Assembly (NCBI GenBank): GCA_021904315.1
Contig: CM038922.1
Coordinates: 3,633,347-3,697,346 of the forward strand
Length of the DNA stretch: 64,000 nucleotides
Reading direction: 5' to 3'
From: Sphagnum magellanicum
Taxonomy: Eukaryota > Streptophyta > Sphagnopsida > Sphagnales > Sphagnaceae
Shown one piece after another: positions 2,881 through 55,051 of this stretch. The notes below the pieces were generated by a model. That model was not told the origin of the DNA. It ran no database searches and saw nothing but the letters and a program-made list of their open reading frames with translations. The position numbers and the translations under genes were made by a program. Each line of letters begins with the position of its first letter. Position 1 is the first letter of the stretch.

Positions 2881-5800
2881 ATGGCAACCACTAGGGCCAT
2901 TCTTCAGGTGCTTGAAAATTTCCAAAAAGCTCGGATCATATTCGTGCAAACATGTGCTGAACTTGCAACAAAGCCCCAGGTTAATTTTCCGATATTCCAC
3001 AAAATTATGTATTATTGTCAATTAGTCTTTTGTTCCTCATCATCATCTTGGGACATTCAAGAAGTCCCGAGAATTGGGGAAGCTGATAGCTTTCTTACAT
3101 GTTGACAAGTTCAGAGGAGTTGCAAGCAGGCCCAGATTGCCACAGTAATGAATTTTGGATGATGCATTTGCATTGATTTCAACATTTCATGGTGCTGCAC
3201 ATTGTGGTTTGCCCATCATGACTTTCTCAAATAGCAATGTGGATGACTATGCCAAAGAGTCGGACTTTCACTTCAACAGTCATTGTCATGCCTCAATTTC
3301 CACAGCATTCATTAAGCTTGCAGTTTTGAGTTCTGGCTGGCCCCTGTGCAGAATGTGGAGGTATTGCATAATGCGGGGGTGATGCAAATTTTGAGGCCAT
3401 TATTGCTGGATGGTGTACCCAATATCCAACAAACTGCATCACTGGCACTGAGCCGGTTGGCAAGCTACAGTGAGGAAATTGCTGAAGCCATTGTGCATGA
3501 GAACATCCTCATTCAGCTTGTGTATTCTCTCAAGTAAAGCAATATCCTCTTTCTTGCCCCTGTCTGTTGCATGTTGGCAGGCTTGTATCAGCTAGTTAGT
3601 ATGCAGATACCATACTGGTGGTTTCACTCCACAGGCACTGGGAAAGTGGTCATGGACACTGACTGGGCTATTAGCTTGAGGCACCACCAAACCTTCACAC
3701 GCACTTTGGGTTGAGTGTGGTATCATTCAATCTTAGGCAAGTTCAGATGTTGAGGAAAGAAAGAAAGGTTGAAGTTGGTTTGATGAAATTAGGTTTGGTC
3801 AAACAATTGCTCCTTTTATCATCTTTTGAGTTATATGTGAAGGGATCAAGGCTTACCAGGGAGGAATCATCATTTCTTCATTGTACCTTTGTTTCCAGTC
3901 TCAATTGAACATCATGTGTAGAAGAATTCTTTTTGAGTTTTTCTTTCCCTCGCTGTACTTAGACTTCTTTTCACTCAAAAGTTGAGCATGGGTCTGTATG
4001 ATCCTTGAAGGGGGCAATGATATGTTATTGGCTTGTGCACACAGGGAGCAGAACAGGTATAATAAGAAAGCTGCGGCTGGTGTATTGAGAGCCATAGCCA
4101 AACACTCAGCTCCCCTGGCCCAGGCGGTGGTGGACTCTGGTGCCATTCCTCCCTTAATTATGTGTCTGGAGGAGTTTGACCCCTCTGTCAAGGAGGTTGC
4201 AGCTGGTGCTCTGGATAATATTGCTCGTCACACTCCTCAACTTGCCCAAGTTGTTGTTGATGCTGGTGCAGTCAGCCTCCTTGTGCTTGCTGTCCAGGTA
4301 CATCTGACCCTCTCTCCTTCTCATTCTACTTGGTGGATAGATTTTTGTAGATGTTGCTGGCATGTCTTCACATTGTCAAGAAGCATGTTCAGTTGAAAAT
4401 TATTGAAATGTGCAGCTGGTTATTCTTTCTCTACGTGAGGGCTTCCAGTTTGGAGTCTAAGCTTTCCTTCGGTACTCTGAAACCTCATCTACACCAGCAA
4501 TAAATGTCCTTGAATCAAATTCCAAATGTCGAAAAGTAGACATATATCTAGGTTTATAAATCAGAGGATGCCAAAGTCTTGATAGCAAAATTACTTTAGC
4601 AGTTCTGGCAGACTAAGAGTTGTTGGAAAACTCATTCAGGACACCCAAGACTTTTGTGGTTTTGAAGAAATGTTTTTCCAGTGTTGCAGGAGCCAGAGCT
4701 TTCACTAAGGAGGATAGCAGCGGCTTTGTTAGCAGATATAGCAAAGCATACACCAGAGCTAGCACAGGGTGTGGTGGATGCAGGCACAGTGCCCTTCACT
4801 GCCCCGCTCATTAACCATGCTGATGCCAAGCTCAAAAAAGATGTATGGAGTCATCCCATCACCCTCTCCACATCCGCTGGATGCCTAAACAATCAATCAT
4901 CTTCAGCTGCTAATAAGGGGTCTCATGAATTCTGATTGTGGGCTTGTTTGAAATTCCCAAAATTTCTCTTAGAGGTTTCCCCCCCATCATTTGCAAAATA
5001 TTGCAATCGGAACTCTTCATTTCCGCTCCCCAGTTTTATAGTCTTTGAGTATGTCTATTCTACTTATCACAGCATTTTCACTCATTCATAGCATAGTTTT
5101 AAAGCAAGTGCCTGCATAAATCTTGCTAGACAGATACTAAAAAAGCTAACCTGGTTTGATTTGTTGTATGTTTTCAGATCTGTTGTTTACTTAGTCAAAT
5201 TGCAAAGCATACCATGGACTTGGCAGAGGTATGAATGTGTTTCATTCTTGTGTTAAGAGTTTTTTTGCTATGTATTTATGTAAGCTGATATATTCTGGTC
5301 AGAACTTTGTCTATGATAATTGTTTTCAAGTGAACATGGGAGCTTGGAAAGGTTACAATGGAGGACGCAGTAGAATTGAGTTGAGTATGCAACATTGATG
5401 TTGTATAAACCATAAGTGTGAGAAGCATCAAAATTGCATATGTATATCATATTGTGTGATTGAGGAATCATGTAGTAGTTAAGACTGTCTCAGTGAGAAC
5501 AAATTTTTTGTCAAGTGAATTTTGCAGGTGATTGTTGCAGCAGATGTGTTTCCAAAGGTCTATCTTCTATTGAAAGACACAGACCCCATGGTTAGAAGAA
5601 ACTCGGCCACAGTGGTGAGGGAGGTGTGCAAGCACACACCAGAGTTGGCCCAACTAATTGTGGCAACAGGTGGTGTTGCTGCCCTTGTTGAAAACATTCG
5701 TGAAGTCAATGGCAATGAGCGCCTGCCTGGTATCTCCACCTCCTAAAATTACCAACGTCACAGTTTTTACCAATGTTGTCCAATTCTTGATTTCAAAAGG

Positions 5801-7420
5801 AACCTTTGGTCTCAGTTCTAACTTGGGTTTTTAATGGGTTTCTAATGGAACCTTCCATATGGTCTTGAGATCAATCAGTTCTTGGGTTTCAAAAACCTTT
5901 GGTTCAGGTCATTTTCATGAAGAATTAAAACCTTGTTTGGTTTAAGACCAGGTCCAGTTTCATCTCCATTACACACAACTAAATTTTTTTGGGTGTAATA
6001 TTGGTTTGTTCAACTAATGCACATACTTCAAGACAAGAATTATGTAATATCAATTATGTAGAACCAATCAAATGCAGTAACTTAAAATGAAGGGTCAAGT
6101 TTATATGTTTTGTTAATAAATTTGCCCATATGCATGTAGAGAATCTGAACCTTTTAGAAATGGGGGCATCACCCCCTGGTTCAGATTCTAATTCAATTTT
6201 GAAAATAGACTAGTTTCCTGGTTAGGTTTTGATGACAGTTCCAAGAGAACTTATAACCTCTAGTCTGAAAACTCTAGAACCTGACCTGTAACTTGGACCT
6301 GAACCTCTTGATACCCAAGAACTTGGCAACACTGGTTTTTACATGCAATGGAAACCAGCTGAAGCTAGCATAACTGGGAGCTTGTTTGCTAACATTGAAG
6401 ACCAATGGTCCTAACAGCTGGTATCACCTTCTCTTGTGGGTGGGCTCTATTTTCACTCAAAGATGGATATGTACAGTGGTTGCACATTCTCACACTCAGT
6501 GGTGATGTGACTAATGGGTACTCACAGAAGGGGCAATTTGGGCAGAAGAAAATGTGTGCCGTTTCGCTGGGTTAACTAACATTATGTCTGCCTCTGTTTG
6601 CTGCAGGTGTGATGGCATTGGGATACATAGCTGCCTTTTCAGAGACACTTGCTCTTGCTGTCATTGCATCAGATGGGCTTCCCCCTCTTCTTGATGCCCT
6701 CACTACTGAAATAGAGGACCACATCAAAAGTGCAAGTGCTTGGTCACTCGGTCAAATCGGCAGGCATACTCCGAATCATGCAAAGGCAGTGGCTGAGGTC
6801 AATACCTTGCAAGCTTTAGTGCATTGCTTCATTGCAAAGACAAGCAGTGAGGACTTGCAAACAAAATGCAAGAAGGCTTTGAAAGGCATTTGTGACCGTC
6901 TTACATATTTCCCTGCTTTGGATGCTGTTATTCAAGTAAGTTAACACAGAGGCTTTTTGTGTTGTGTTTTTCCTTTTACAATCAAAAAGTCTGCCATAAC
7001 TTGGGAAAATACATCATGTTGTTGCAACATTTCGGATTTGAAGATATTGCATGGTGCACTAGAGTGTCTCACAATTGACAGGGCTCTTGATGTAAAAGAC
7101 TTGTATATACAAATTAGAGTCAAGAGTTGAACATTCAGGCATTGGGTTGGTTATGACAGGGCCCACCACTACCCGAAGGAATACTTAAGTATGTACTGGC
7201 ACAAATAGCAAAGGTGATTCCTCATGACCAGGAGGCCAAGACACAATTGGTGACCTCTGGCAGCTTCGCCAAAATACAGGAGATTTGTGTGGAAGCTGGA
7301 AGTGAAATCAAAGAGCTCATAGACAGTGTGAACAGCAGTTACCCAATTGAGATTGTGCACTATTACTCCCCTGGCTATTCAGAAGTTCTCCTCCAAAAAC
7401 TAACTAGTGGAAAATTCTAG
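2881..7420 (+). CDS. SPAG6: PF16/SPAG6 axonemal armadillo-repeat protein
   Basis: Exons read as 2881-2979, 3352-3533, 4045-4297, 4690-4842, 5178-5228, 5528-5729, 6607-6935 and 7160-7420. All junctions are GT-AG and phase-compatible, giving 509 residues and a TAG stop, the same length as the animal protein. The protein is a chain of armadillo repeats. Recognisable segments are the N-terminal ILQVLENFQKAR, the repeated AKHTPELAQ motifs, GRHTPNHAKAVAEVNTL, and the C-terminal YYSPGYSEVLLQK signature. In flagellates PF16 sits in the C1 microtubule side of the central apparatus and is needed for motility. A plant copy implies swimming sperm. The start ATG is supported by alignment with the family N-terminus. 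No frameshift or internal stop is seen. A MITE sits in intron 6, and a ~250-bp tandem duplication lies upstream. Expression in antheridia or sperm is inferred, not visible. Confidence 0.96.
5771..6334. mobile_element. Non-autonomous hAT-type MITE in SPAG6 intron 6
   Basis: The 564-bp element is bounded by a perfect 8-bp target duplication, GTTTTTAC, at 5,763-5,770 and 6,335-6,342. Its left end reads CAATGTTGTCCAATTCTTGA, and its right end on the other strand reads CAGTGTTGCCAAGTTCTTGG, a good terminal inverted repeat. The 8-bp duplication and CAGTG-type tips fit hAT transposons. There is no transposase frame inside, so it would need help in trans. It lies wholly inside an intron, clear of both splice sites. 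Confidence 0.88.
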
Positions 7421-14640: not shown

Positions 14641-16833
14641 TATGATTGATTGCTTAAGAATAATCAAAGGAGAACACAGTTCTACCCATACCAATGCCAA
14701 CCAATGCATCTAAGTTGCTAACAAGTTGGTTCCATGGCATGCAACACAAGTATCCCACAGTAGTTCCAATGTGTTCTAATGCATGGTCATCCTATCTTCA
14801 GGCAAACCCAATAATTTGAAATAAGATATCCAAAATCAAGGAATGCTATTGAACCTTAAGAACATAGGGAAATTGCATCAAATGAAGCAATGCCTGATAC
14901 AAATTCAAATTGCAGGAACGGATGGATGAAAGAAATATGTTGTCTTTAACTACTATTTTTTTCATACCACAGATTTGTGCTGAGGCTTTACCTATTGGGT
15001 GTCTTATATAGGGCATTCCATTCAATCCATTTCTCTACTCTGTTGTTTTATGTATTGTTTCGGATTGTGGATTTAATTTGTACAGAATGGTAAATTGTCC
15101 ATTGTTACATGGTAATGTTCCACATTTGGGAAATCTCCTGTTGGCAGATGTAATTCTCTCTGGCAGGCGTTCACAGTGACCTTTGAATTAGAAGAGCACT
15201 CTTGACAAGAGGCAAAATTTACAAAGGCAAGGCAGGGATGGGTATCTGTGTCTATCCAACCTCTCCATTTTTATCAAGGAGATTTGATCACCAGAGTAGG
15301 TCTGTAAGAGGAGGAAAGTGTAAACATAGATCGGTACCTTGGTGAAGTCCCTCTTTCTATATTTTCTGCAACATATGAGGTAAAGGGACATTTTTAGGTA
15401 TGCTATGAAATAAATAATAGTATATTAAATGAATACTCTTTTACAGTTGAGAAGATCCTAAGAATATTTTAGATATGTATTTTCATATCAATTCTAATTA
15501 TCACCTTATTTACATTTAAATAAATGATAAACTATACTTTTTCAAATTAGTTGCACCCCCCATGATTTTTATTTTTTTGCATCTTATTTAGAAAAAAAAT
15601 GGAAGTGACTTCCCTGGGTAGGTACATAGAGGGGAAGGGTAAGTTTATAGGTAGGCAAGTATGAAAGCTTCAGATAGACGAACAGAAACCATTCTTTCTA
15701 CATTATATATATTATAGATAAATAAATTATGTGTCAGGTGACGAAAAAAAAAATCGGATTTTCTGTAAAATTTTGTGTTTTGCCTCCAGAGATCACGCCC
15801 ACACTACATCTGATCTGCCACCCAGATATTTGGAGTTTCTACCTCAACAGGAAGACAGACACCCCAAGAGATGCTCGCAATCAAGGATTTCCCTTGTATA
15901 CAAGCAAAAAGCATCAATATGCTTCCGACAAAAAAAAACCTAATCAGATGATTGATTTCCTCAGGAGACCACCCAAAAAAGAAAAAGAAAAGAATGGTAA
16001 TCGGAAGGGTCCTTTTTCCTTTCTTCTAAATTCTGATAGCAGCGCATGCATGCACACAGTTGCTTCCTAGAATCGTCGTAGGTTCTTTTCACGTCTGAAA
16101 AATTGGTAATTTGTACAGCACTGATCTCTGTAACAAACTTCCGAGTTTTTTGTTTTATGGTCATGACACGAGGATTCAGAGACTTTTGATCATCATGGGT
16201 GGACGTATAACAAGAGCATTCTTAAGGCAGAGCAGGATCATCTGATAGAAAGAAAGCTTCTTTTCAAGAATTCTCTTAAATGTTATTCTTTTGTAAACGT
16301 TGGGTCCTTCTCATTTTTTATTATTTATTTTTTACAATGCAGATCTTCCAACTTCAAGCACAAGGAGTTCTCTTGCAACTCCCTGTGTGACATGTGGGAA
16401 ATTTATCAGAACCATCCTTTTAAGAACTCCCTCTTAGAACCAATGTCAAAGGGAAAATTGGTATTTCCCCAATCTGTGCTTTCCAACAAGGAGAAATTAC
16501 CGACTTCCCCTTGTAGTCATTAGTCATATGGTCGAGTTATACATAAACCCTTCTAGATGAACTAATTTCCCTGTGCACACGAAGTTCCTTCGGAATGTTG
16601 CAAAACCCGCTCCATGTGTTGCACAATTCCCTGTTACTTACGTTTGTAGTCTCTTCTTGGAGGTAAAGTTAGACAATTTCCAACAAGGGAAGGAATCATC
16701 CAAGAGCTCCCTTGTGATATATACTTCAGCCTCGCTCGATCGAGATTTCAGCTGCTGCTGGTGCTGCAAGGGAATCATCAAGTGCTGAGCGAGCCTCCGA
16801 GTCTGACAGAAGCTGTCACTGGTACTTGAAGAC
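14640..16833. other. Intergenic DNA and probable leader of the coiled-coil gene
   Basis: Nothing is recognised up to about 16,500. The last ~200 bp before the 16,834 ATG is probably 5' UTR and promoter. A 113-codon frame at 15,729-16,070 is lysine-rich low-complexity text without family resemblance and is not called. Confidence 0.45.
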
Positions 16834-19800
16834 ATGGCTGCATCACCAGCTAAGAAAGAGAACAACATGATGCAGCAGCAGCACACGCATCCAGCGAAGA
16901 TGTGCATCACTGACACTTGCAAGAGACCATTCTCTGCGGGTCGGAAACGCAACAAGTTGCCCAAAGTTTTGAGCGCACCCAGAACAGCGCCAAGCGGAAT
17001 AAGTACGGTGAGATGTGGTGGTGGTGGAGAGCAGAGCATGGTAACGTCTTCTTCTCCGGCGATCATCATCGTGGACGGTCCAGGTGGCGGCGGGGGGCGG
17101 GGTTTGTCAGCTGGAACTGGAGACTGGAGCAGCTGCTGTATGGAGGAGATCATGAAGGAGGCCATGATGGGACCGCCCCAAAAGAAGGCCAGGGACATCT
17201 TCCGCGACAAGGAGTCGCTGGTGGAGGAAATCTATAACCTGAAGACGGCCCTGGCCGACCAGGGCACCCACTTCAAGCTCCACCAAGTCCACCACAGAAG
17301 CATGAGCGTGGAAAACAGGCAAGTGTAATTTACTACTACATACTAATTAGCTATATCAGTTTTCCTTTTTTTTGTCACGTAGCGGGACTGGTGATCATTC
17401 ACAAGAGGAATGAGCCAAATTTGGCTACAGGTCAGAGAGGACACTAAAAATATTTTGGAATTCTGCCTAGTTTTGGCGACCTATCTGTCTGAACTCATTG
17501 TCTAGATCTCGTTACTTCTAACTTTTTTTCCCTCAAAAAACCTTTGAGTAATTTGCGATGGATTTTTTTTTGGTCAGCAAAAGGAAAACACCGCTTAGTT
17601 TTTTTGTTTTTTGGGATAAAATTTCGACCTGAAAAATATGATTTCTACCTATACAAAGGATTCTCCATGGAAAAAGAAAACAGACTGAATTTTTTCAGAT
17701 TTTTAAGACTTTTTCTTTTTTCAAATTACCAGATTTTTATGATAAGTTCCAGTATGTAGTCAAATTTGGCTAAATGATTTTCTGGATGATCGCCGCTTTG
17801 GCTACATCACAAAATCCTTAAAAAAAAAAACCCCGCAGCAGTACTTACTCATTCATTGGCCACCATCACTGGAATTTCTTTCTCTCAAGCTTTCTTCCTT
17901 TCTACAAAGGTTGGTGATTTGAGCTGGACTGTCACAAGAGGGGCTTTTTTTTCTTTCAAACTTAATTTTGTGATGTAGCTAGCCACACTGGCGATCATCC
18001 ACTGTTGAGGAATTAGCCAAATTTGGCTACAGTTCAGATAGGAAAGTAGGTTTGACTATATTTCAAGATCAAAACCCATTTACTTGTGCAAAGTGTGCTG
18101 ATAAGTTTTGCATAAATCTGTAGAAATGTGACAAATTGGACATTTCCAATTGATGTCATGACAAAATTTTGTCCTGAAAGATGATCAGAAAAACACATAC
18201 AGGAAACTGGAGCTGGAAATAACCAACTTGGAGACACAAAATGGCTATGAAGCTCCTAGAACAGGGGGAAAATGTCGTCTACGTAGCAAGCTACTTGGTG
18301 CTCCCCTTGTCCCAATAGTTCATTTAAAAGAAAATATCAAAAATAATCTATGTTTACTGCATTAAGCTTTAACTTGTAAGTGGATCAATAATATTTGTCT
18401 AAGTGTGCACTCATGGATATTTAAACATTAAAATATATTGTTTAAATCCAATCCAACCTTGAAGAACTGGATTTGTTCATGACCTATACTGACACATCTG
18501 ATTTTAACAATGAAGACAAGTTGAAATCTTCTTATATATTATGGGTGTTTGAAGCTATTTTATGAAGCTTAAGCAACGAAGCTTGCCAAATATGCCAATG
18601 TAACTAGATTGCATTTGGCAAATGCAATGGTGGCTCTTCTTTACCATAATTTCTTGACCTTTGTTATAGCCCAAAATAATATTCAGTCTTTCAAATTTTT
18701 TTCGAAAATCCATTTGATAATGGTCACCATTACTCTCCTTTGGTTTCCAAAAGGCACCCACAAGTTTACTTAACACACTCAATCTACCTCCATAGGGAAC
18801 TTTACACACAGTTTGTGGGCTTGCTTAATGTGCCATGTCTTGTCAAACCATCAAGTTTGTTCCATTGGAGATGATCTTTATCAAGGAAATTGTTGCTACC
18901 CACTTACACAAATAAAGTGAGTAGGGTGATTGGCGTATGTAATTGTAGGGTGTAAAGCAAAGCTCCTTGAGCTCCAATCTTTATTCGAAATTCAACGAGA
19001 GGAGTTGATTGAGCTCAATAAAGATGGCAAAATCTCATTGACTTACGTAAACTCTAACTCCTTATGGAGACCTTCAGGCATATGCAATACAAACTTGCTT
19101 GCTACTATAGCTAGAGAAGGAAATCATTGCACGATTAGGTTTATGAATTGGACCCAACCTTAATTTGAGCATGTGCCTATCTTCAACTGCCTACTTAATG
19201 AAACTGATTGGCATGCATCTGTATATATCTTCAGGAAGCTCGAGTGGAAAGGGATATATTTGCTTCTGAAGTTCGAAGACTTCAAAAAGAATTAAGAAAG
19301 TTACACCACCTGCACCACAAGATTATAACTGGAAATGCTGAAGTTGCACGCTTACGAGCACTTATACATGGCTTCAACTTGCATGGACAACAACTCAGTC
19401 AGACTATTTCTGTAAGTGTGTTCTTTTTTAATCATAGTCATAAACATTTTGCTTCTAAGTGCTAGTGTTGTGTCAAATAGTGAAAAGTTTTACCACTTGG
19501 ATATTGTTTGTATACAACCTATATGAATTGCGTAAATCAACATTACTCTAGTTGCATGGGATTGGAATACCATAGACACTTCCTTTGCTTTTTAAAGCAA
19601 TTTGGGGGCAAAATTTCACCCAGTTTTGGGTATTGTGCGCTGTGGGGCATTACATTCTTAAGGCCCTTGTGTGGGGGTTATTGCTATTGTTGTGTGGGTG
19701 TGTTGCTTTTGATATATCCTTGGCTAAGGATATATATATTTTCCAATTTATTTACCCATGGAGTAAGAGTATATCAGCATTCAAAAGATTTCATCAGGTT

Positions 19801-22800
19801 AGGGTTTGAGTATTAAAAGATTAATTTTTTTTTATAAATGGGTGGGGTTTGGGTACAAAACGGGTATTTATTATTTATTTATTTATTCAAAATGAGAATT
19901 TTTTTCACACTTCGAAAAAAAATTAAGACAATTTTTTCAGGTCAAATTCAGGGTCAAAATGCAAGAATCATCATGTTTGATTCACCCACGACTACAAATA
20001 TGCACTTTGAGTCCATGTCAGATTGCACTAATCAAATATGTATATTTGTCGATGCACCTTGATTTTATCCCATATAGTTTGCCCAAAGTTCTTCCCTTCT
20101 CACCTGTAGGGTCAAAGAGAAGACACTACATCTAAACATATAAATTTTTGTTGTGGGGCAACTTTCAAAGTTTCAACTAATTAGTAAATTAATTGATTGA
20201 TCTTTGTGATGGGGCAATCAAAAAAAAATTTAAAAAAAAAAACTTGAAAAATACCCCAACCTAATTAATAGAACTAACAATGTTTAGGGTTCAAGTCATA
20301 TTTGTCTTAAACTTTTTTACCAAAATGCAAAAACATATCCATCTTCAATATGGGTATTTAACATGTATTCAAAGTCATGAATTTCTAGCTGTATAGCTAA
20401 ATTACCTATTGATGGCACTCAATGACTAGGTAATAAAATTTCCTCACATGATGGGTGCCAAGTGCAACCAAAATGTAGGAGAAAAATCACATTCAAGAAC
20501 TTTGAGTTCAAAATGTTCAAAAATCAGGTTGTAATATATGATCATGATATTTTTTTTGGCCATATTTGCATGGTTCCTCACATGCCCAGTCAAGCCAAAC
20601 CATGAACATGTATATCCCCATTCCCCCACCTATGCACTTATGTCATGTTCACTAGAGCTTACATATAGATGCCATTTTTCCTGTCCAACCCAGCTAGTGA
20701 CGTATCACCAAGTTAGTGAAATCAAATGTATATTCATGGGAGATAACCCTATCAACATACATCAAAGCCAAACATCCAAAGAATCCTAAGCAGCCTTTTC
20801 TTTCTACTGGCGAAATTTAGTCAAAAATAGAAAATAAATTATTTTCGAGGGTTTCCATCATCAGTAATGAAAAAAAGAAAGGTGAAAATCATCAAATTTT
20901 TAATTTTTTTTTCAGTGTGTAAACATGAATATAGAAGGTTGATTCTATAAATTCTGCTCCCCATCTGGTTTGTAGCCAGATTTGGCTAAATCTTCCTAAG
21001 GACAATTGCTATTTTTTATAAATCTTCCTATGGATGATCACCACTTAAGCTACATAAAGAAATTCCATTAAAAAAGCCCTGACCCTAAGAAGCCTACTCA
21101 TGTATGTACAACCAATATGGGAAGAGAGTCAGATTATTAACAATCATTACAGTTAACCTATGGACATGACCCTGTTTCTCACTCTTTTTTTCTCCCCTTT
21201 TTCTGATGTACCTGAAATGGCAATGATCCATAAGGTGACCTAGCCAAACCTTTGGGTGTTAAAAAAAAATCAAAGTGAAAGAACTTAAGCATGCTCACAT
21301 ATTTCTGGTTACCTAACGGAACTTAATATAGAATCTGGAAATTTTCTTTTTAAAGTTTTTTTCTAAATTTGGCTATTAATCAACCCAAAATACCCACTTT
21401 TTTTTTGGCATTGTGAATTGTTTTGGGCCATTAGGTTAAAATTTTCTGGGAAAAAAATTGTTGATACGTAAGATTCACACAGCCCAATAGCTACTAGAAT
21501 GACATAGGAATCTAAATTCACTTGTTTAATTCATTCCATTTCAAGAATTTTGACAATACCTGATGCAAAGATGATGTTCGGAGATACCATCAGAAAAAAG
21601 ATTAAATGCAAAGCAATATTTACATTTCTAATAATGAGTGACATTGGTTGGTAGGATGGCATTTGATAAAAATATGAAGTTGAAGGGTTTACAACCATCC
21701 AAATGTGGAAAATACTATGAATAATGAATATTTGGTCCTATTGTGGCCTCATGTATACTTATTATGAGCATTGTCATTTAGGTTGGTGAAGCAAGAAGTT
21801 TATTATATGAATTATACAGAGTCAATAGATTGATTCAGTCACCTTATTGTTTCATTTTAAAATGATGTTATCTTGTGGTAATGGATTTAAGATAGGAGCA
21901 AGCCCATTTATACTAAGCATTAGAAATAAGCATTTTGGGGTGAAAGAAGAGCGAGGATCATGAATGAATTTTCATAATTTTGATTGCAGCCAATAATCAA
22001 ATTACTTAATAATGAATCATGTGGTGTCTCAGACTAAAATTTTGTATCATTAATGTCATGAATATGGACCAATCAAAAATTATATTGTAAATAAGCTAAC
22101 AACCTATAAAAAATCTTAACATTTCACACCAAATTGGCAATTCCTTGCACCTCAACCAAATGCTATGCATATTAGAGGATTGGAAGAATATAGACAAGCC
22201 ACCAATTACCACTACAGCAACAGAAAAGGACTTGGATTGAAAAAATCAAGCTCCACAATAAAAACCATAAAACAATATAGGAAGAGATCTAGAATTTCTT
22301 TGAGCAATAACCTAGGAAATGCAATATCTAACATTTTGTTTAATGTTGGAAATAAACTAAGGAAGGATTAAATCAAGAAACCCACATATCACCCACAAAT
22401 TAATCTTGTCGCCAAGTTTTTTCTTTTTCTTTTCTTTTCTATTGTGATGTAGCCATAGTGGCAATCATCCACAAGGGGAATTAGCCAAATATGGCTACAA
22501 GTCAAAGAGGAAAGTAGAAAATTTTCAGAATCCTGCTATATTTTGATGACCTGCCGCTGGAATCTATTGTCTAAACATGACAATTTTGAAAATGTTTTCC
22601 TCAAAATGTGGCAACTTTGGCACATGTTTTTCATAAAAATCCTTTGAATGAGTTGCACTTGATTTTTTTGGGTTGCCAAGTAGTGAAAATTTGCTCCCCA
22701 AAAAAACAAACACTGGTTGTCACTATTGGGTGGCTTGTTCATAGAAAGATTATAAACCACATTACAAAGAGATCCAAACCAACAACTTAGAAATGCAATA

Positions 22801-24852
22801 GGGTGATGTTGGTAATACCCTATTGCATTACCCTATTGAATAGGGTATTGTTTTATTTCCAATCACTGCCCACAAGGTCATAATGAATGTTGTGGCTAAA
22901 TTATTGTTATTATTATGGCTAAATGGTATGAGAAATTGGGGGGCTTGGGATTGGTTGCCTACCTACTATTTTTGTAGAGTTACAAGGAGAGTTTGGAACA
23001 GAAGAGAAAGGAAATTCAAATGTGGAAGGCAACTGGAGAGGCAGCCATGGAAGAGGCAAAGCGACAAGGGCAACGACTCGGGGAGCTTGACGAACATAGC
23101 AGTGTCCTTCAAGGCTTACTTGATCGGGAGCGTGTTGAGAAACGGCGGATGGAGAAGCGGACTCGGTTGCTGGAAGAAGATATTCGACGCTTGGATAGAG
23201 AAGCAGAAGCCAAGAAGCTGAAGGATGCCCTGGCCAAAGCCAAGCGCGATGCTAAAGCTCGCAGGAACAAAATGAAGAAGAAGGGCAAAGGCAAGAAGGG
23301 CAAAGGCTCTAAACTTGATGACAAAAAGGACAAAGATTCTTCATCAGCTGCTGCATCAAGCTCTGCCACTACTCCCAAAAACCCTGCCGATGATATTGCT
23401 CAAATGTTCTTGAAAGAGGTGAAGGTGGCAACTCACAGGTTTATTGAAGATGCTCCAGCTTCCAAACCAGGTTCTCCCAAGACTCCACCAGCTTCAAGAT
23501 CCAAAGCTGCTGCTGCAGAAGGTGGTTCCTCTCCTTCTTCTTCTTCTGCTGCTGTCGAGGCTACTGGTGCCGATCCTGGAGCCTGGAAGTTATTACCGGC
23601 TGCTGGTGGTTCAGACCAGACTGGTCAGGCTGGAGCTTCGAAATTAGCCGCAGCTGGTGGTGGTTCAGACCAGACTGGTCAGGCTGGAGCTTCGAAATTA
23701 GCCGCAGCTGATGGTGGTTCTTCATCAGTGCCTACTACTACTACAGTTATTCCTGGTGAAGAAGAACAGCACAGAACCTTTGAAAGAATTCGCACGCAAT
23801 TCACCAAAAGAGTTGATGAAGCGGAAAACGATTTTTTGAAGAGGATGGAGGGAATGGAATATGGAGAGGGAGGGAGGCCCAATATGGAAGCAGCGGGAAG
23901 GCTGACGAGTGGTGAAGAAGCACGACGAATTGCAGAAGAGAAATTGCATCTGGCTCAACTGGAAGTGCAGCGGTTGGCAGAAGAAGCAAGACTGGCGCAA
24001 GAGGAAGCAAACCGACTGCTTGCAGAGCTTGAAGCATTGAGAAAAGCACATATGGTACCTCCAGGAGGCAAGAGATGGCAAAAGGAAAATCTCACCATAC
24101 TTGTGGATGACAAAGACTTGCCTCCTAGTGAGTACACTTCCGACATACAAGACCAAGGTACAGAGATCTCCATCGAAATTGCGATCAAAAGCCCAACTTC
24201 TGAAGCAGATAAAGCAAGGATGAGAGCTGAAGCAGACATTGCAGCAATGAAAAAGAAAGCGGAAGAAGATGAAGCACGTAGGAGACTTGAAGAAGCTGAA
24301 GCCAAGAGAAAAGCTGAAGAAGAGGAAGAGGCGATGCGAAAAAAGCGTGAAGAGGAAGAAGCCATGCGTAGAAAGCAAGACGCGGAGGCCAAGAAGACTG
24401 GTGATGTTGAAGAGGCACAAAAACGCATGGAAGAAGAATCACGAAGACGTAAAGCTGAGGAAGATGAAGCGGCCAAAAGGAGAGCTTCCTTTGAGGCACA
24501 CAACAAGAAATTGCAAGACGAGTTGGCTGAAGCGAATCGTAAAGCTGCTGAAGAAGAGGAGGAAAGAGCAAGACGGAAAGCTTCCATGGATGCTCGCAAC
24601 AAGAAATTACAAGAGGAGTTGGAGGCTGCTAACCGACGAGCTGCTGAAGAGGAAGCCAAACGCAAGGCGGCTGAAGCTTCCTCTTCCGCTGCTGGTGAAC
24701 AATCTTTCTTCGATTCTGAAATGCATGGCGTGATCAAGGATAACATCAAAGAGGTGTTGGGTCACTTGGAGACTATCTCTGATGCCGTGCAAAAGAAAGC
24801 TGGGGACGAGCAAGGAGAACAACAAGGACCCACTCAATCACCACCCAAATAA
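16834..24852 (+). CDS. Large coiled-coil protein, possibly IQCE-related (ciliary)
   Basis: The exons are my reconstruction: 16834-17322, 18189-18282 (or a donor at 18298, adding 5 codons), 18949-19046, 19235-19411 and 22978-24852. All are GT-AG and all phases agree, giving about 910 residues. Residues ~1-145 are low complexity. Residues ~140-286 are a coiled coil, including KESLVEEIYNLKTAL, KLELEITNLETQN, AKLLELQSLFEIQREEL and VRRLQKELRKLHHLH. In order and spacing these resemble the N-terminal coiled coil of IQCE, a protein of the cilium base, but I see no IQ motif. Exon 5 adds a further coil, a KKGKGKKGKG basic patch near residue 390, an Ala/Ser/Pro linker with two identical 18-residue repeats, then a long K/E/A/R coil with an internal 32-residue duplication. 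Proximity to SPAG6 suits a flagellar role. The gene structure is well supported; the identity is tentative. Confidence 0.72.
17365..17815 (+). mobile_element. MITE with inverted arms in intron 1 of the coiled-coil gene
   Basis: The left arm reads TTGTCACGTAGCGGGACTGG, then GATCATTCACAAGAGGAATG and the palindrome AGCCAAATTTGGCT. The right arm near 17,757-17,812 repeats this inverted: CAAATTTGGCTAAATGATTT, GGATGATCGCCGC, TTTGGCTACATCACAAAAT. That gives a ~440-bp foldback element. No target duplication was established. Other copies lie at 14.3, 17.9, 20.9 and 22.4 kb. Confidence 0.65.
17940..18060 (+). mobile_element. Partial copy of the same MITE family
   Basis: TTTTGTGATGTAGCTAGCCA, ATCCACTGTTGAGGAATTAG and CCAAATTTGGCTACAGTTCA match the forward arm of the family. 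This copy ends about 130 bp before exon 2 of the coiled-coil gene. The right arm is missing or unrecognisable. Confidence 0.6.
20955..21070 (-). mobile_element. Inverted partial copy of the MITE family
   Basis: GTAGCCAGATTTGGCTAAAT and GGATGATCACCACTTAAGCT run in reverse orientation to the other copies. It lies within the 3.5-kb intron 4 of the coiled-coil gene. Confidence 0.55.
22425..22700 (+). mobile_element. Forward copy of the MITE family in intron 4
   Basis: ATTGTGATGTAGCCATAGTG, AATCATCCACAAGGGGAATT, AGCCAAATATGGCTACAAGT, then a stretch with the TCAGAATCCTGCTATATTTT and GAATCTATTGTCTA text also seen near 17,460. It is the longest forward half of the family in the window. Confidence 0.6.
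22792..22849 (+). repeat. Overlapping alternative hairpins in intron 4
   Basis: AATGCAATAGGG (22,792-22,803) pairs perfectly with CCCTATTGCATT (22,818-22,829). AATACCCTATT (22,814-22,824) also pairs perfectly with AATAGGGTATT (22,839-22,849). The two stems share a central arm and exclude each other. They sit about 130 bp before the exon 5 acceptor. Confidence 0.7.
23603..23712 (+). repeat. Exact 54-bp tandem duplication inside exon 5
   Basis: Two units of 54 bp encode the same 18 residues, GGSDQTGQAGASKLAAA plus G or D. Over the shared unit the DNA is identical as read, so the duplication is young or kept identical by conversion. It is in frame and in a disordered linker. Confidence 0.92.
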
Positions 24853-27711: not shown

Positions 27712-28227
27712 CTATAGCTTATTTGTACCTAAAGCCTTTATGAAAATGTCAACAACTTGATCTTCAGTACTGACATGAATGAGGTCAATTTCTTTTGCTA
27801 AAATTTTTTCTCTTATAAAGTGGTAGTGCACCTCAATGTGTTTTGTCCTAACATGATAGACTGGGTTGTTAGCAAGTAGTATGTTACTACTGTTATCACA
27901 ATAGATGACAACAGGAGCATCCACTGACTGTCCCAAATCTGAGAGTAGTTTTTGTAACCAAACTACTTCACATACAGCAATTGTTGCACCTCTGTATTCT
28001 ACCTCCGTACTTGATAGTGCAACTGTTGGTTGTCTCTTACTACTCCAACTAATAACACCACTTCTATAAAAAAACATGAAACAACTGGTCCATCTTCTAT
28101 CTGAAACATTGTCAGCCCAATCAACATCCGTGTATCCATGTACTTGTAATTGGCTCTTGGCTTCATAAAAAATTCCACACTGCAAGGTATGTTTTATGTA
28201 CTTCAATATGCGCCTCACTGCATCCAA
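27712..28227 (-). pseudogene. Copia RNase H domain (broken pol)
   Basis: The frame contains the copia RNase H pieces HGYTDVDWAD, LSSTEVEYRG and IYCDNSS, followed by the RTKHIEVHYHFIRE segment and a short KALGTNKL tail. It is in the same frame as the RT to its right, separated by a single TGA at the TP*KPHLDA position. That stop is one C-to-T change from an arginine codon. Confidence 0.9.
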
Positions 28228-28236
28228 ATGTGGCTT

Positions 28237-29346
28237 TCATGGTGTTTGCATGAATTGACTTACCACTCCAACTACATAACTCAAATTTGGCCTTGTGATG
28301 GTCATGTAAATCAAATTCCCCACTATGCATCTGTACATAGTGGTATCCTCCATGAGGTCTCTTTCATCTGCACTTAACTTCACATTTTGTTCCAATGGAA
28401 TTGAAATGGGTTTACAACTCGTCATCCTGTATTCAGCCAATTTGTTCAAGGCATATTGCCTTTGTAGTAACCATATCCCTTTAGGGGAATGGATTACCTC
28501 AATGCCGAGGAAGTAACGCAATTCTCCCAAATCTTTCATCTCAAACTTTTGCTTCAAAAGCTTTTTTAAATCAAAGATGTCTGCATCACTATCTCCTGTG
28601 ATAATCAAGTCATCAACATAGATGACTATGACTACAATCCCATGATTTGTCTTTTTCACATACAGTGAAAAATCTGCATCGGATGTTTAAAATCCACTTG
28701 TGACAAGATACTCACCTATCTTATCTGACTAAGCTCTAGGTGCTTGCTTCAAGCCGTACAAAGCTTTCTTCAACCTACAAACCAAATTATGATGTGTTTG
28801 GTCCACATAACCTAGTGGTTGTTCCATGTACACTTCTTCTTGTAAATCTCCATGAAGAAAAGCATTCTTTACATCCATTTGATGTAAAGACCATCCTTTT
28901 GCTACTGCCATAGCAATGATTGCTCTTACAATTGTCATTTTGGCAATTGGACTATAGGTCTCGTCATAGTCTATGCCATAAGTTTGGGCATAACCTTTGG
29001 CAACCAATCTTGCTTTGTATCTACTCATAGATCCACCTGCATTGTGTTTGACTTTGTACACCCATTTGCACCCAATTGCTTTCTTATCCTTTGGTAAAGC
29101 TACCAATTCCCAAGTAGAATTCGCATCCAAAGCCGCCATCTCTTCATCCATGGCATTGTCCCACTTAGGGTTTCCAACTGCTTGTTCAAAACAAGTGGGT
29201 TCAACCTCTTGTATAACTCTCACCATGTATGCGTAATGATGAGCTACAAAGCCATCATATGTGAGTATTTGTACAGGGTACTTGACTTGTGTGGATCTTT
29301 GTACTCCACTGTTTTTGTCAAGTGTTTTCAAAACTTTCTTAGCCAT
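28237..29346 (-). pseudogene. Copia reverse transcriptase (broken pol)
   Basis: The right part holds the RT start ([53 protein letters not shown]). The left part holds the YVDD catalytic box and the KDLGELRYFLGIEV segment. Two in-frame stops lie between them around 28,690-28,735, just after LKQAPRA and after LVTSGF. The catalytic motif itself is intact but the polyprotein is not. Confidence 0.92.
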
Positions 29347-29559
29347 CCGAGCTCCAGGAGTAATAATTGAAGTGATTCTTGATTCTTCACCCTCACTCTT
29401 TTCTAATTCACTTGATTCACCATCTACATGAGAATTTCTAAATGATGTTTGAGAACTACCATGTATAATGTTTGAAGATCTTAATCTTCCTTTCCATGGA
29501 GTGTTACTGGACCCACTAATTGAAGACTCTTATGGTCCACTAATTAATTGTGATTTTTG

Positions 29560-30360
29560 TTCCACATTTGATGAAACATCACCATTTCTAGCTTCTCCAT
29601 CTTCTACTACCTTCAGTGATGAGTACCAACTAGCCATCTCATCAAACACAACATCTCTATTCACTTGTAACTTCCGAGTGGAAGGATTGAAACATCTATA
29701 TCCCTTTTATTCTAAGGAATATCCAATGAAAATACATTTCTCATCTTTTGGGTCTAGTTTTGATCTCTTCTCGTCAAGAACATGCACGTATGCAATGCAA
29801 CCAAACATTCTGAGGTGTGAAACATTGGGTTTCTTGCCTGTGAATTTTTCTTCAGGGGTCATGCCATGAACTGCCACTGTGGGTGTTCGATTTGTGATGT
29901 AGACTGCAGTTGCTACCGTTTCAACCCAAAAGTAATTTGGCAAATTCTTCTCATTCAACATGGCACGTGTTATTTTTGCAATGTGCTTGTTTTTCCTTTC
30001 AGCAACTCCATTCTGCTGTGGGGAATAACTACATGAGTACTTCCTTTGAATTCCATGCTCCTTCAAGTACTCACTGAATTCATTTGAAAAATACTCTCCC
30101 CCTCCATCGGACCTTAGGCACTTGATGCTCACACCCTTCTCCTTCTCCACCATTGCTTTGAAATTCAAAAAATGTTGAAACACTTCACCTTTGTGTTTCA
30201 TGAAGTAGACCCACACCTTCCTTATGTGGTCATCAATGAAACTCGCGTAATATTTGCATCCTCCAATGGATTCTGTCTTCGTGGTCCACACATATGAGTG
30301 GATCATTTCCAAAGGTTTGGAACTTACATGAGTTGTTTAAGCTGGGAATGGATGCCTAGC
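29560..30360 (-). pseudogene. Copia integrase (broken pol)
   Basis: The open part runs 29,707-30,312. It contains KYYASFIDDHIRKVWVYF, CLRSDGGGEYFS, QQNGVAERKNKHI and RMFGCIAYVHV. The second Asp (RSDGGGEY) and the Glu (GVAERKN) of the DDE triad are present. The first position reads HSYVW, where the family has Asp, so the catalytic centre is probably dead. The zinc-binding CETCQLGKQARH lies just upstream, before a stop. Confidence 0.9.
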
Positions 30361-49457: not shown

Positions 49458-52400
49458 TCAGTTCTGTGCTGTGGGTGCTGCTGCTGGCTGAGTTGTGGCA
49501 GCTGCACTGGAGCTGGTGGGGACAGCAGCCGTGTTGTAGTCATAAGGAGCAGCAGCTGAGCCAGCACTCTCATTTGGTTGTGTAGTATACCCTGTTTGAG
49601 GCTGATTATATGCATATGCTGATTGGCTCAAACTTGGCTGGTCCCCCTGAGTAGGCTGAGCATACCCGTATCCAGCATTGTATCCCTGTTGGGCATAGCC
49701 TTGCTGACCATATCCTGGCTGGGTATATGCAGCAGACGGGTCACTATAGCCTGCAGCAGGTGGCTGCTGCTGATAACCACTATAATAACCCTGCTGACCA
49801 TAGCCATACCCTGATGTATCTGTGGCAGAGGTCCCTGCCTGTGAAGTTTGCTGTCCACAAACACCCCAACTTTTGTTTGAGTATCAAGCTTAATGAAACA
49901 TAGGACCTTGTGGCTCAATAAATGCCCTCAGCATGGTAGATAATGCCAAAAAATCTGGACAAAGGCCACTTTCTACCAAATCACAGCATATAAGAAGCAG
50001 GAATTACCAGTTGTCCTTGCTGTCCATAGTAGTCGTATGAGCCCTGTGGCTGTGCTTGTGCTGGTGGAGCAGAAGAGCGTTGATCCCAGCCAGATGCATA
50101 GCCTACAGTTGGCTGTTGAGAGTATCCACCATATGGTTGTGGTGGTCCAGCATACTGTGGTGGCAGACCCATATATTGGGGAGCTTGCTGATATCCATAG
50201 GAAGGAGGTGGAGCTGCTGGTGGAACCCATGGCTGTGGGGGGCCCGAGGGCCTATACCCTCCTTGTTGGTGGTAACCACCAGGAGGGCCTCGTGTAACAC
50301 GATTCTATGGAGCAATCCAGCCAGCATACCCAATGAAAATCAGCAACTTAACAAAAGAGAGAACAGGACAAAGGCCAAGTGCATAAACCAAACCTGCAAA
50401 GATGCCAGCCCTTCTTCAGCACAAGAAGACTTGGCAACTGAGCTTCATCACTCCCAATATAACTTCGAGCAAATATGCGGCAGAACAGTTTTGACATCAC
50501 ATCACACAGCAATCAAACATCAATGACAGGCAGCAGTGTCAATGACACAATACAAGCCAAGCATTTTATTACATATGCAAATACATGTTTGTCATGATGG
50601 TTCCTAATAACCATAGATGTGCACCAAGGCATGTGTAGTCAGTCAGTTCACACAGGCTGGACAAATTACTCTCACCTCGTCTCCAAACAGTGTGTGTGAG
50701 CTTTCTGGCTACCGGCGAAAGAGTGGAGCCCGTCCTTCCTCAGTGCATTTTAGGTGCACCTGTTCCAGGGACTACTAGCTGTTTCCCGTCCCACAGCCCA
50801 AGGGGGCTCCAGTGGACAATCCAAAATTCTTCTGACACTACAATTACTGGATGCAATATTTTTCTTCACAAAGAGTGATCTAATTAATCACAACATTAAG
50901 AATACACAATGACAATTGAACAGATGCCCAGTAAACCCACTACAATGTCCAACACTATGCAACACATGCTCAATAATAAGAAAGCTGTTTGTCAGGCATA
51001 TCCTTCATAACATATAGGTGAGGTCGAGTTTTCCCTGGAAACTCGCCTGAGAATTCTAAAGGGGAGAGCTGGTTGCACCCAAAGCCTTTTCATCAACCAC
51101 ACATCATGATAACATCCATGACCAGCTGTGAAAAGTTCTCTTGGAAACCAATTTCTACAAATAAGCATATGTTACAATAACCAAGATAGCACTGGAATAT
51201 GCAAGGGACAAAACACCAACTGTCCAGTTGATGGCAAGTTTTTAATTACATAAAGAGTTACAACATTAACAACTAAAAAAACCAGGAATGCAAGAGTCAC
51301 ACATGCCTAATGGATATTAGCAGAGGAGACATATCCATGATCAATCTCCAAAAGCATCATGAATCTGTCTGGAAAGCATTATCAAACAATGAACTGACAC
51401 TCTTACTTCATCTGCAGAGCAGACACAGGAACAGTCCAAGAAAAGGATACATACAGAATTTTTCAAGAACTGGAATGCATCATGTGGAACTAGAATGAAA
51501 AATAATGCAAAGAAACCTCAAAGTAGTTGAGGCTTCAAGAAATACATAAGAATTGACTGCCAAGTAATTCAATTGCAGAGCTGAGACAAAATACGTTCGG
51601 AACCATACCATGATCCAGATGGTGCGTTATATCCTCGTACTAACGGCTGTCAAGATTAGAACTCATTGCAAATAATATAAGGTCATTACCAACAGCATTT
51701 GGCACAATGGAAGATTTTTGTACACTTTTGAAAGGGTTTGCAAATTCAGAAGTTTCACCAACTCAGCCAAGCACGATTTGAAGCAAGCTTGATTGAATTG
51801 TCTGGAGGACAGAGCTCTAGTTGTGGACAAATTCATATGAGGATCTTTACAGACATCCTGTAAATAGGAGGGCTGTGATTTTTTATCAGTGAATGGAGCA
51901 TGTTAAAGACACCACAAGTGAATCTGCATAAACCCAAAACACAACTTGCATCCAAGCACTCCCACACAGACATGAGCATGCAAACAAGGGTCTGGTTCAC
52001 CACACTGACCATAGGCTGCAAGCAAATTTACCTCATCAATTACTTCTTTGATCAGATCATAAGCCATATCTGTAGCCTTCTTGTTGCCTATCAGTGTCAC
52101 CAGCCTTTCAGTAGCACCTGGCTCAGTCTCACCATCATTTTGAACCTGGCAGATAATTAGTAGCGACCCAGGTTCACAACCATGAGTATGAACTGGAGCA
52201 ATACTAATTTTAGCTCAAAACTGTCTGAAGGAAAAATATTTGCTTCTGACATGATTCCTCAAAAACATGGCAAGGTAAACAAGGCACACAACCTGTATGC
52301 GGACACCACAGCGGCTCTGAAGGTTCTTGATGGTCTCACCTCCCCTCCCAATGATTAAACCAACCTGAAAATACCCCACCTGTAGCTCAATACTTCCTCG

Positions 52401-55051
52401 GGACATCAACTTGCACATTGCTCCAACTACTACAGAGAGCACAAAGTTGTTGTGCACCAAAAAAGATACAGACCTTGTTATTAGGTACTTTAACTTGCAC
52501 TTGCTCCCCTGGAGGACCAAATCCACGAGCAAGACCACCTGGTCCACCAGCTGAGGCCTGTTTTGAACATCCATAGAGATTACAGGGACATTAGGCAAAC
52601 CATCTAATATATCTAAAAAGTCAGAGGAATCCTTACTCTACAAGTACTCAGGATGCCTGAGAAACCATGACCTTGAGCTCAAGGAAAGAGGAAAGATTAC
52701 TCCACACAACAGATAACAACACTGTAAGTGATCACAAAGACAAATCATACATGATACACCTACAGCCAACCAGCATGAATCAAAGGAGGAGGAAAATCTT
52801 CAGCAGAATTGAGAACATTTCCATGCTTACAATTTAAGTTGACCTGAATAGAATTGAGAGAGAACCCAGTATAATGTTATACAGAATTCAAACAGAACTA
52901 CATCACATAAACTATGAAAAAACAAGATCCTGACCCTAAAACTCATGGGAGAAACTGAGGAGCAGGCTACTAACTCAGTCAGTACAGCTCAGCTTGTACA
53001 GTAGCGACAAGCTACTATAATATCCCATGGACTTCATCAGCCCCCAGCAGTCAGCAAAGTACATAAACCAACATACTGAGTTTCTGTCAAAAACCTAGCA
53101 ATAGCAGGAAAACTCAGCCACAATGCTACCTAGCTCAATAAAACATAAAACAGAAGGGAATTACCAAGGACAACAAGAAGAACAGGGACCGCAGATGTTG
53201 AGAAATGGCCAAAAAGAACCAAGAAAGGAGAAAGGTTAAAAACAATAACACAACATGGAGAAATCTAGAACCATGAACAATTGAGGACAGATAGATCTTA
53301 TGAGGAAGAGCAATAGATGGTCAGAATAAGTTGACCATACAGACCTCTGCAATCACATCTTTGACAAGTTGTTCAGCACGGTTAATCTGTTCTGGAGTCC
53401 CTGTGAGCTCCACTTGTCGTGTTGACAGACGAGGGTCAGAATCAGCATCCCGTGCTACCTGAATTCTTGCCCCCGATTGATGCTGCAGATACTTGATGGT
53501 CTCCCCACCTTTCCCAATAACTAGCCCTACCTGCAAACGAACATAATATCAAATTGGATCTCACATGGCCAGGGCTTACACCTGATATCAAACATACACA
53601 TGGCCCTGACAAATGTGTTCTTTCAAATGGCAACTGTGAAACTACTCCAATTCTTGTGCACAACTTTGAAAGTAACTGTCAGAGCATGAACAGCCACATT
53701 AAATAACTCAATGTACTCAGGAAAAACCAGTCAACTAGGAACTTGATAATGCTTTCTGGAACTGCCCATGTAAGAAAAAAAAATATTCTGGGATGGCTTT
53801 CCATCAAAGCCAAAAGTGAATCAAAGACCATTCTCAGATACAATTTCTTCCAGAGGTGCTGGCAGTCTAGGCAAGGGAACTCCCATTGCTGCCATGAGAG
53901 TAAGTGATCCAGTTGCAGCAGTTGACAGATGAATCCTCATCATCATGGAAATGTCCCATACTCCCCATTTTTGTTGCCATCTTGTTTCATCTGAGTTGTG
54001 AGTGCTACTATACAATCCAAAAGGGACACTACTCTGTCCTAAGAGCCACACAGAGAAGAGGACAAAGGGAAACCCTACCTTTGAGTTTGGGACATCAATT
54101 TTCCTTGATAGGGTAGATCCCCCTTGGGGATTATAGTATTGAGGAGCTTGATGATACTCTTGAGAAGGTGGATGTTGATACTGCTGCTGCTGATGATGAT
54201 GATGATGTTGCTGCTGCTGCTGATGCTGGCTTTGATGCTGGCTTTGATGCTGGCTCTGGTGTTGGTCATCTTCTGAAGGCTGATCTTGCCCATTGTTGTG
54301 ATCTGGGGCAGACAGCAACAACATACCGTGAGACAATCACACCCTCCTCTAACAATTATCATGAGGAGGAAGAAAACAGTGAAACAATATAAAGACTTAA
54401 AGGAGCAAGATCTTTGGAAGCATGTCAGTGAACCCATAATTTCTGTTTATGGTCAAGGAGAGGCACATATGTGTCTAGCTTGGGCCAATAATTCATCATG
54501 TTTGCGAGCATTGGTCAATGGGGAGGCTAAAGGATTTTTTTTTTGAACATTACATCAATGTCATACGACACAGAAATGAGTGTTTCCAAAGACTTGCACT
54601 AGCTATATAAGAAATGACAACACTTCGATCAATAGAAAACAAGAGCAAAGACTGAATTTCCAAACCCTATCCTATTGTCATCGTCCTTACCAGCATAACC
54701 CTGGTCCAAGTCGGAGCCGTTAGACCGAGACGGTCCCTTGATGTGATCGTCCAAGACCTCTTCCGTCCTTGGCCTTTTGCCCTCCGCACCGGTCACCAAG
54801 CGTGCCGCAATAAGCTCGGCTCTCTGTTTCGCAAGCTCGAACTCCGATAGCGGAGGCGGCACGCTGTTGTAACTCACCCCTGAGGTAACAGCTGCCCCTC
54901 CTCCTCCTCCGTCCCCAACATCGAAGGCGGCATTAAAGCTGCTGTGATGATGATCCTCCCCCGCAACAACATCTTGGAATTTCCGCTTGTTTTCAATGCG
55001 AGCAGGTTCGAACACCGCGGAACTCCGCACTCCGCCACCATCGTCCGCCAT
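49458..55051 (-). CDS. Two-KH-domain, Gln-rich RNA-binding protein (FUBP-like)
   Basis: Minus-strand exons: 55051-54691, 54302-54079, 53530-53345, 52557-52474, 52364-52293, 52145-52032, 50304-50008 and 49850-49458. All are GT-AG, phases agree, and the product is 576 residues ending in TGA at 49,458. Order: an acidic/Gly-rich N-terminus (start MADDGGGVRSSAVFEPARIE) with a basic KRPRTEE patch; a His/Gln-rich stretch; KH1 (residues ~188-257, GKGG loop in VGLVIGKGGETIKYLQ); a linker with GGPGGLARGFGPP; KH2 (~276-347, GRGG loop in VGLIIGRGGETIKNLQ); and a long Pro/Gln/Tyr-rich tail with YGQQ-type repeats. This matches plant far-upstream-element-binding-like KH proteins, which bind single-stranded nucleic acid and act in pre-mRNA processing; nuclear location is inferred. 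Its CTCCTCCTCC tract lies upstream near 55,154-55,175. A 38-bp candidate exon in intron 6 is left out because it breaks the frame. Confidence 0.93.

What the first reader, a model, noticed from the sequence alone, without database searches (positions are those of the whole stretch)
16834..24852. Uncharacterised coiled-coil gene that may be the plant form of IQCE
Four small or medium exons plus one large exon join in phase to ~910 residues. The region around KESLVEEIYNLKTAL, KLELEITNLE, AKLLELQSLFEIQREEL and VRRLQKELRKL follows the order and spacing of the IQCE N-terminal coiled coil. IQCE works at the base of animal cilia. The gene lies 9 kb from SPAG6, and its highly charged C-terminal coil has no obvious angiosperm counterpart. 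It may be an undescribed sperm-flagellum or basal-body protein.
Basis: inference. Interest (0 to 1): 0.72.

Follow-up and report, generated by a model that had tools for sequence, protein, structure and literature searches.

The report
Moss relatives of ciliary protein IQCE
A moss gene and its four sister copies carry the same coiled-coil segment as the start of the animal cilium-base protein IQCE, joined to a different tail, which suggests that this segment is older than the Hedgehog signalling it serves in animals and may work in the moss's swimming sperm.

Summary
The gene is real: five exons at 16834-24852 (+) join in phase into 909 residues. Exon 2's end was uncertain until paralogues placed it at 18297. 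The genome (438,994,042 bases, probably the peat moss Sphagnum divinum) holds four paralogous loci with the same coil exons. A profile of the five coils (window residues 121-256) matches residues 140-267 of human IQCE at 48.9 bits, E 6e-12; without the window gene 45.5 bits. The best of 177,635 PDB sequences gives 18.1 bits. The window gene alone matches only weakly. The IQCE suggestion is upheld for the N-terminal coil. By architecture the protein is not an IQCE orthologue: no IQ motif, and its last 624 residues do not match IQCE, though one paralogue shares them. A sperm-flagellum role is likely but untested: no expression data, no other plant genomes, no EFCAB7 search. SPAG6 lies 9.4 kb upstream, which proves nothing about function. 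I rate it a new variant of a known kind.

The parts
16834..17318 (+). exon 1: basic, glycine/proline-rich N-tail (residues 1-120), then first part of the IQCE-like coil (DIFRDKESLVEEIYNLK...VEN); GC donor CAG|GCAAGT
   Evidence: coil block found in all four paralogues
18203..18297 (+). exon 2: RKLELEITNLETQNGYEAPRTGGKCRLRSKLLG; donor TTG|GTGCTC
   Evidence: donor scores; homology to the same end in C9, C2 and C16b; C4 exon 2 uncertain
18949..19046 (+). exon 3: (G)CKAKLLELQSLFEIQREELIELNKDGKISLTY
   Evidence: C9 and C2 copies clear, C4 copy 20.4 bits, C16b copy only 5.6 bits (E 0.14) and placed by phase and length; no gap against the others in the alignment
19235..19411 (+). exon 4: EARVERDIFASEVRRLQKELRKL..., end of the IQCE-like coil
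   Evidence: block seen in all four paralogues, weakly in C2 and C4 on its own
22978..24852 (+). exon 5 with stop: further coils, low-complexity linker, conserved block KRWQKENLTILVDDKDLPPSEYTSDIQDQGTEISIEIAIKSPT, long charged coil, conserved IKDNIKEVL near the end
   Evidence: 624-codon frame; aligned with the C9 paralogue, BLOSUM62 score 398; all helix or disorder in a single-sequence AlphaFold model, mean pLDDT 65.6, pTM 0.22
17319..18202 (+). intron 1 (GC-AG)
19412..22977 (+). intron 4 (3,566 bases), carrying a repeat copy

Best explanation
The gene encodes one of five moss loci that share an ancient coiled-coil module with the N-terminal part of IQCE (shown, subject to the recalled human sequence). 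[quoted passage not shown] The most likely function here, inferred, is that the ~125-residue coil dimerises and docks a partner at the base of the sperm flagellum or its precursor, while the long plant-specific charged coil stands in place of the IQ-motif tail and acts as a scaffold arm. The Hedgehog role would then be a later, animal use of an older ciliary-base tether.
For: Five-locus family found with the window coil, not with IQCE. Family profile vs recalled IQCE coil 52.0 bits, E 7.1e-13; vs full IQCE 48.9 bits; four paralogues without the window gene 48.6 (coil) and 45.5 (full); C9 paralogue alone 33.6 bits, E 3.9e-7, C16b alone 26.0 (E-values for 177,635 sequences). Leaving out each member in turn gives 41.0-49.8 bits. 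Controls: best PDB sequence for a profile of the same five sequences 18.1 bits; 0 of 10,000 class-preserving shuffles of the IQCE coil reach 52.0 (max 47.4, mean 15.4) and 0 of 9,808 plain shuffles scored (max 15.1). The tail before the coil is alike in length (120 vs 137 residues). Recalled IQCE has 695 residues and Gly132, as printed in PMC6232527 (passages). IQCE-EFCAB7 at the EvC zone: PMC10413113 (passages).
Against: The window gene alone matches weakly: 15.3 bits with the first splice model, 21.0-22.8 with the final one, whose exon-2 donor is also the one of seven that gives the highest IQCE score. Full-length window protein against full-length IQCE gave no reported hit in either direction. 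3 of 10,000 (window shuffled) and 29 of 10,000 (IQCE shuffled) class shuffles reach the single-sequence alignment score, and at least five shuffled decoys of 4,999 scored 24.7-28.5 bits in phmmer. Two paralogues match poorly alone (C2 5.6, C4 14.5 bits). No IQ motif found and no match of the last exon. No evidence on expression, localisation or partners. None of the recalled DUO1-type sites scanned for lies in 15501-16834.
Confidence: 0.6

Rival explanations
1. The coil is homologous to IQCE, but the moss proteins no longer work in cilia; they were recruited to another cytoskeletal or scaffolding job.
For: Five diverged loci in one genome (37-46% identical to the window coil), a C-terminus without similarity to IQCE, no IQ motif found.
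Against: The source is probably a moss, mosses make swimming sperm (recalled), and it keeps SPAG6; no positive evidence for another role.
Confidence: 0.2
2. Convergence: a moss coiled-coil family that resembles IQCE only because both are charged coils with similar heptads.
For: The single-sequence match is borderline; coils inflate scores, e.g. class-shuffled IQCE reaches 47.4 bits at most against the profile and the C4 coil reaches 22.3 bits against Pfam Leu_zip, below that family's cut-off.
Against: Profile score 48.9-52.0 bits over the whole coil against 18.1 for the best PDB sequence; 0 of 10,000 pattern-preserving shuffles; survives removal of any one member.
Confidence: 0.1
3. It belongs to a different ciliary coiled-coil family already solved in axoneme structures, or to another known family.
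For: Charged coil, gene near SPAG6.
Against: No PDB sequence better than E 0.02 with the family profile, none better than E 0.3 with the final window coil; no Pfam family over its cut-off in any of the five coils.
Confidence: 0.07
4. The gene model is wrong: exons 1-4 and the large exon are two genes.
For: The last intron is 3.6 kb; several donors are weak by an approximate score.
Against: The C9 paralogue has the same coil exons followed by a homologous large frame; phases agree throughout.
Confidence: 0.03

Closest known systems
IQCE (human IQ domain-containing protein E), N-terminal coiled coil, residues ~140-267
   Same: One collinear coil of about 125 residues with gaps of one and two residues only: REKE/RDKE...EI..LK..L..Q...EN...I..L, G.K..(I/L).(K/E)L...E.......(F/Y)..EV.RLQ (alignments); long tail before it.
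   Different: No IQ motif found; the 624 residues of the last exon do not match IQCE; EFCAB7 binding untested; five loci in one genome.
IQCE-EFCAB7 / EVC-EVC2 tether at the ciliary base (papers, passages)
   Same: Proposed analogous work: a coil that anchors a partner at the ciliary base (inference).
   Different: Hedgehog signalling and EVC proteins are absent from plants as far as I know (recalled); no partner identified here.
Pfam Leu_zip PF15294 (I recall this as the LZTFL1 family)
   Same: The C4 paralogue's coil matches it at 22.3 bits.
   Different: Below the cut-off of 28.2; no other of the five coils lists it.

Membership tests
IQCE | N-terminal coiled coil alignable over ~125 residues with human IQCE | tested here: met
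   48.9-52.0 bits by family profile, 45.5-48.6 without the window gene; human sequence recalled, with two checkpoints met
IQCE | C-terminal IQ calmodulin-binding motifs | tested here: not met
   No PF00612 in the window protein and no IQ pattern; none in the C9 last exon; positive control: PF00612 at 52.6 bits in recalled IQCE; the 3 IQ matches at E <= 0.001 in the genome (88 candidates scored) lie elsewhere
IQCE | C-terminal half alignable with IQCE | tested here: not met
   a profile of the window and C9 last exons scores below zero on IQCE
IQCE | Binds EFCAB7 | not testable with these tools
   needs an experiment; presence of EFCAB7 in the genome was not tested
IQCE | Location at the ciliary base | not testable with these tools
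   no localisation or expression data
IQCE | Reciprocal best match within the genome | not tested
   the IQCE query against the genome did not complete (21 attempts, listed in Tried and rejected)
Solved axonemal coiled-coil proteins | Significant sequence match to a PDB chain | tested here: not met
Proteins confined to plants with swimming sperm | Present with, absent without, motile sperm | not testable with these tools
   no other plant genomes in the collections

The most novel reading that the evidence does not exclude
IQCE's N-terminal coil is an ancient ciliary-base tether that predates Hedgehog signalling. Mosses kept it, multiplied it to five loci and joined it to a new coiled-coil tail as a scaffold of the sperm basal apparatus, so moss sperm can show what the EvC-zone machinery did before animals used it for signalling.
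Probability: 0.35. Interest if true: 0.72.

Novelty: new variant of a known kind. Interest (0 to 1): 0.55.

Why it matters
In the papers seen here IQCE is a vertebrate Hedgehog and polydactyly gene. A homologous coil in a moss, without Hedgehog, would date the module to an early eukaryote and give a genetic system (moss sperm) in which to find its original job. It also names a new moss protein family with two conserved C-terminal blocks of unknown function. Searches of the open-licence paper library listed no paper on IQCE in plants, judged by titles and abstract starts: 4 of 4 listed; 1 of 1; 25 of 85 listed; 10 of 10. Sequence databases may nevertheless already label such proteins.

Tried and rejected
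Single-sequence comparison: with the first exon-2 donor (18283) the window coil reached only 15.3 bits against IQCE, hardly better than the best PDB hit of 14.8, and 3 of 2,000, 12 of 5,000 and 13 of 5,000 class shuffles reached its alignment score. On that alone I would have called the homology unproven. Listing the in-phase donors showed that 18298 has the best donor score and also the highest IQCE score of the seven; paralogues later confirmed it. The rotation control (max equal to observed) keeps most of the alignment and says nothing.

Exon-1 GT donor at 17323 (CAA|GTGTAA) rejected: it does not fit the exon-2 acceptor in phase and scores lower. Coil and heptad computations (the latter with a COILS matrix from memory) show coils but do not discriminate. 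Recalled DUO1-type MYB sites: none found. IQCE peptides in papers, to check my recall: no paper. Pusapati 2014 (PMC4027042) is not held. AlphaFold of the last exon gives only helices and disorder, so no fold search was run. C4's exon 2 could not be placed with confidence; dropping it gives 49.9 instead of 48.9 bits against full IQCE.

Full report
What is there. The window (C16:3633347-3697346 of a 438,994,042-base genome) probably comes from the peat moss Sphagnum divinum, whose assembly is 439 Mb (PMC9946827, passages); this is an inference from size and content. The gene starts with ATG at 16834 and ends at 24852. Five exons join in phase into 909 residues. The last exon is a 624-codon open frame, far beyond chance (max 247 in 60 simulations). 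GC content is 0.39-0.56 in the exons against 0.33-0.38 in the introns (with the earlier exon-2 end).

Splice uncertainty. Intron 1 has a GC donor with an otherwise strong consensus. Exon 2 had seven in-phase donor candidates; 18298 scored best, -2.6 against -4.9 or lower (approximate table). The paralogues settle it: exon-2 homology runs to the same K(L/I)xG end in C9, C2 and C16b. C4's exon 2 remains uncertain.

A family, not a single gene. Searching the own genome with the window coil gave 13 matches from 18 scored candidates: the five window exons and eight weak matches (E 7e-4 to 0.2) at four other loci on C9, C2, C4 and C16. What makes these convincing is the shared layout: each has the exon-1 and exon-4 blocks and an exon-3 block that aligns without gaps, clear in C9 and C2, 20.4 bits in C4, only 5.6 bits in C16b, where phase and length placed it. 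Coil identities to the window copy are 46, 45, 37 and 43% for C9, C2, C4 and C16b. C9 also has a 476-codon frame that aligns with the window's last exon from residue 23 of that exon nearly to its end, with large gaps in the low-complexity part, and keeps KRWxxE...DQG..I.IEI.IKSPT and IKDNIKEVL. C9 has one in-frame TGA in exon 2 (L014:2985-2987).

Relation to IQCE. Its length (695) and Gly132 agree with PMC6232527 (passages). Alone, the window coil matches IQCE only moderately: 21.0-22.8 bits, E 0.003-0.0008 for 177,635 sequences, BLAST 37.0 bits, E 0.003 for a database of 11 million residues; the best PDB sequence for that coil gives 14.5. Full-length window protein against full-length IQCE gave no reported hit. 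Pattern-preserving shuffles reached the alignment score in 3 of 10,000 (window shuffled) and 29 of 10,000 (IQCE shuffled), and at least five shuffled decoys reached 24.7-28.5 bits. The profile of the five coils gives 52.0 bits on the IQCE coil and 48.9 on the whole protein; the four paralogues without the window gene give 48.6 and 45.5. Leaving out each member in turn gives 41.0-49.8 bits. A profile of the same five sequences against the PDB gives a best of 18.1 bits, E 0.02. No class-preserving shuffle of 10,000 reached the observed score, though the highest came to 47.4. The paralogues could not have influenced my recall, so I take homology of the coil as likely (about 0.85).

What differs. 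The protein has no IQ motif that Pfam or a pattern finds, while the same library finds IQ in recalled IQCE. Its last exon does not match IQCE. By the rule that a tested and failed feature bars membership, I do not file it as IQCE; it is a protein family with an IQCE-type N-terminal coil.

How it may work. Shown: coil homology, shared exon layout, a helical and disordered C-terminus (single-sequence model). From papers: IQCE and EFCAB7 form a complex that holds EVC-EVC2 at the ciliary base (PMC10413113, PMC9858533 and PMC4631099, passages). Inferred: the coil serves as a docking element at the base of the sperm flagellum, and the charged coil is a scaffold arm in place of the IQ tail. SPAG6, a central-apparatus protein (recalled), lies 9.4 kb upstream; this shows that the genome keeps a flagellar gene but does not tie this gene to flagella.

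Novelty. Paper searches combining IQCE with Chlamydomonas, plants, bryophytes or moss listed nothing on plant IQCE as far as titles and abstract starts show (one search listed 25 of 85). Sequence databases were not available, so an existing automatic label cannot be excluded.

Noticed in passing
L014:2985-2987 (C9 paralogue, exon 2): In-frame TGA inside an otherwise conserved exon (RL*SKLQG) while the 476-codon downstream frame stays open: a recent lesion, an assembly error or unusual splicing.
   Followed up: partly
window 24457-24648: Tandem duplication of a 32-residue segment (96 bases, 73% identical) in the charged C-terminal coil; a second duplication of 54 bases at 23576-23683.
   Followed up: partly
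window 17405-17446, 18007-18048, 22475-22516; inverted arms 17755-17830 and 22424-22499: Copies of a short element (GAGGAATTAGCCAAATTTGGCTACA...) in introns 1 and 4, possibly a small mobile element.
   Followed up: no
window 27712-30336, minus strand: Copia-type retrotransposon remains by eye; RVT_2 at 169.9 bits in the 28729-29526 frame, the other frames not tested.
   Followed up: no
window 49458-55099, minus strand: Probably one KH-domain RNA-binding gene with a Q/Y/G-rich part: KH_1 at 34.9 bits in 52215-52634; no Pfam match in 49458-49880 and 54629-55096.
   Followed up: no
window 3986-7417, plus strand: SPAG6/PF16 exons.
   Followed up: partly
window 24070-24198: Block KRWQKENLTILVDDKDLPPSEYTSDIQDQGTEISIEIAIKSPT, conserved in the C9 paralogue, of unknown function.
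   Followed up: partly
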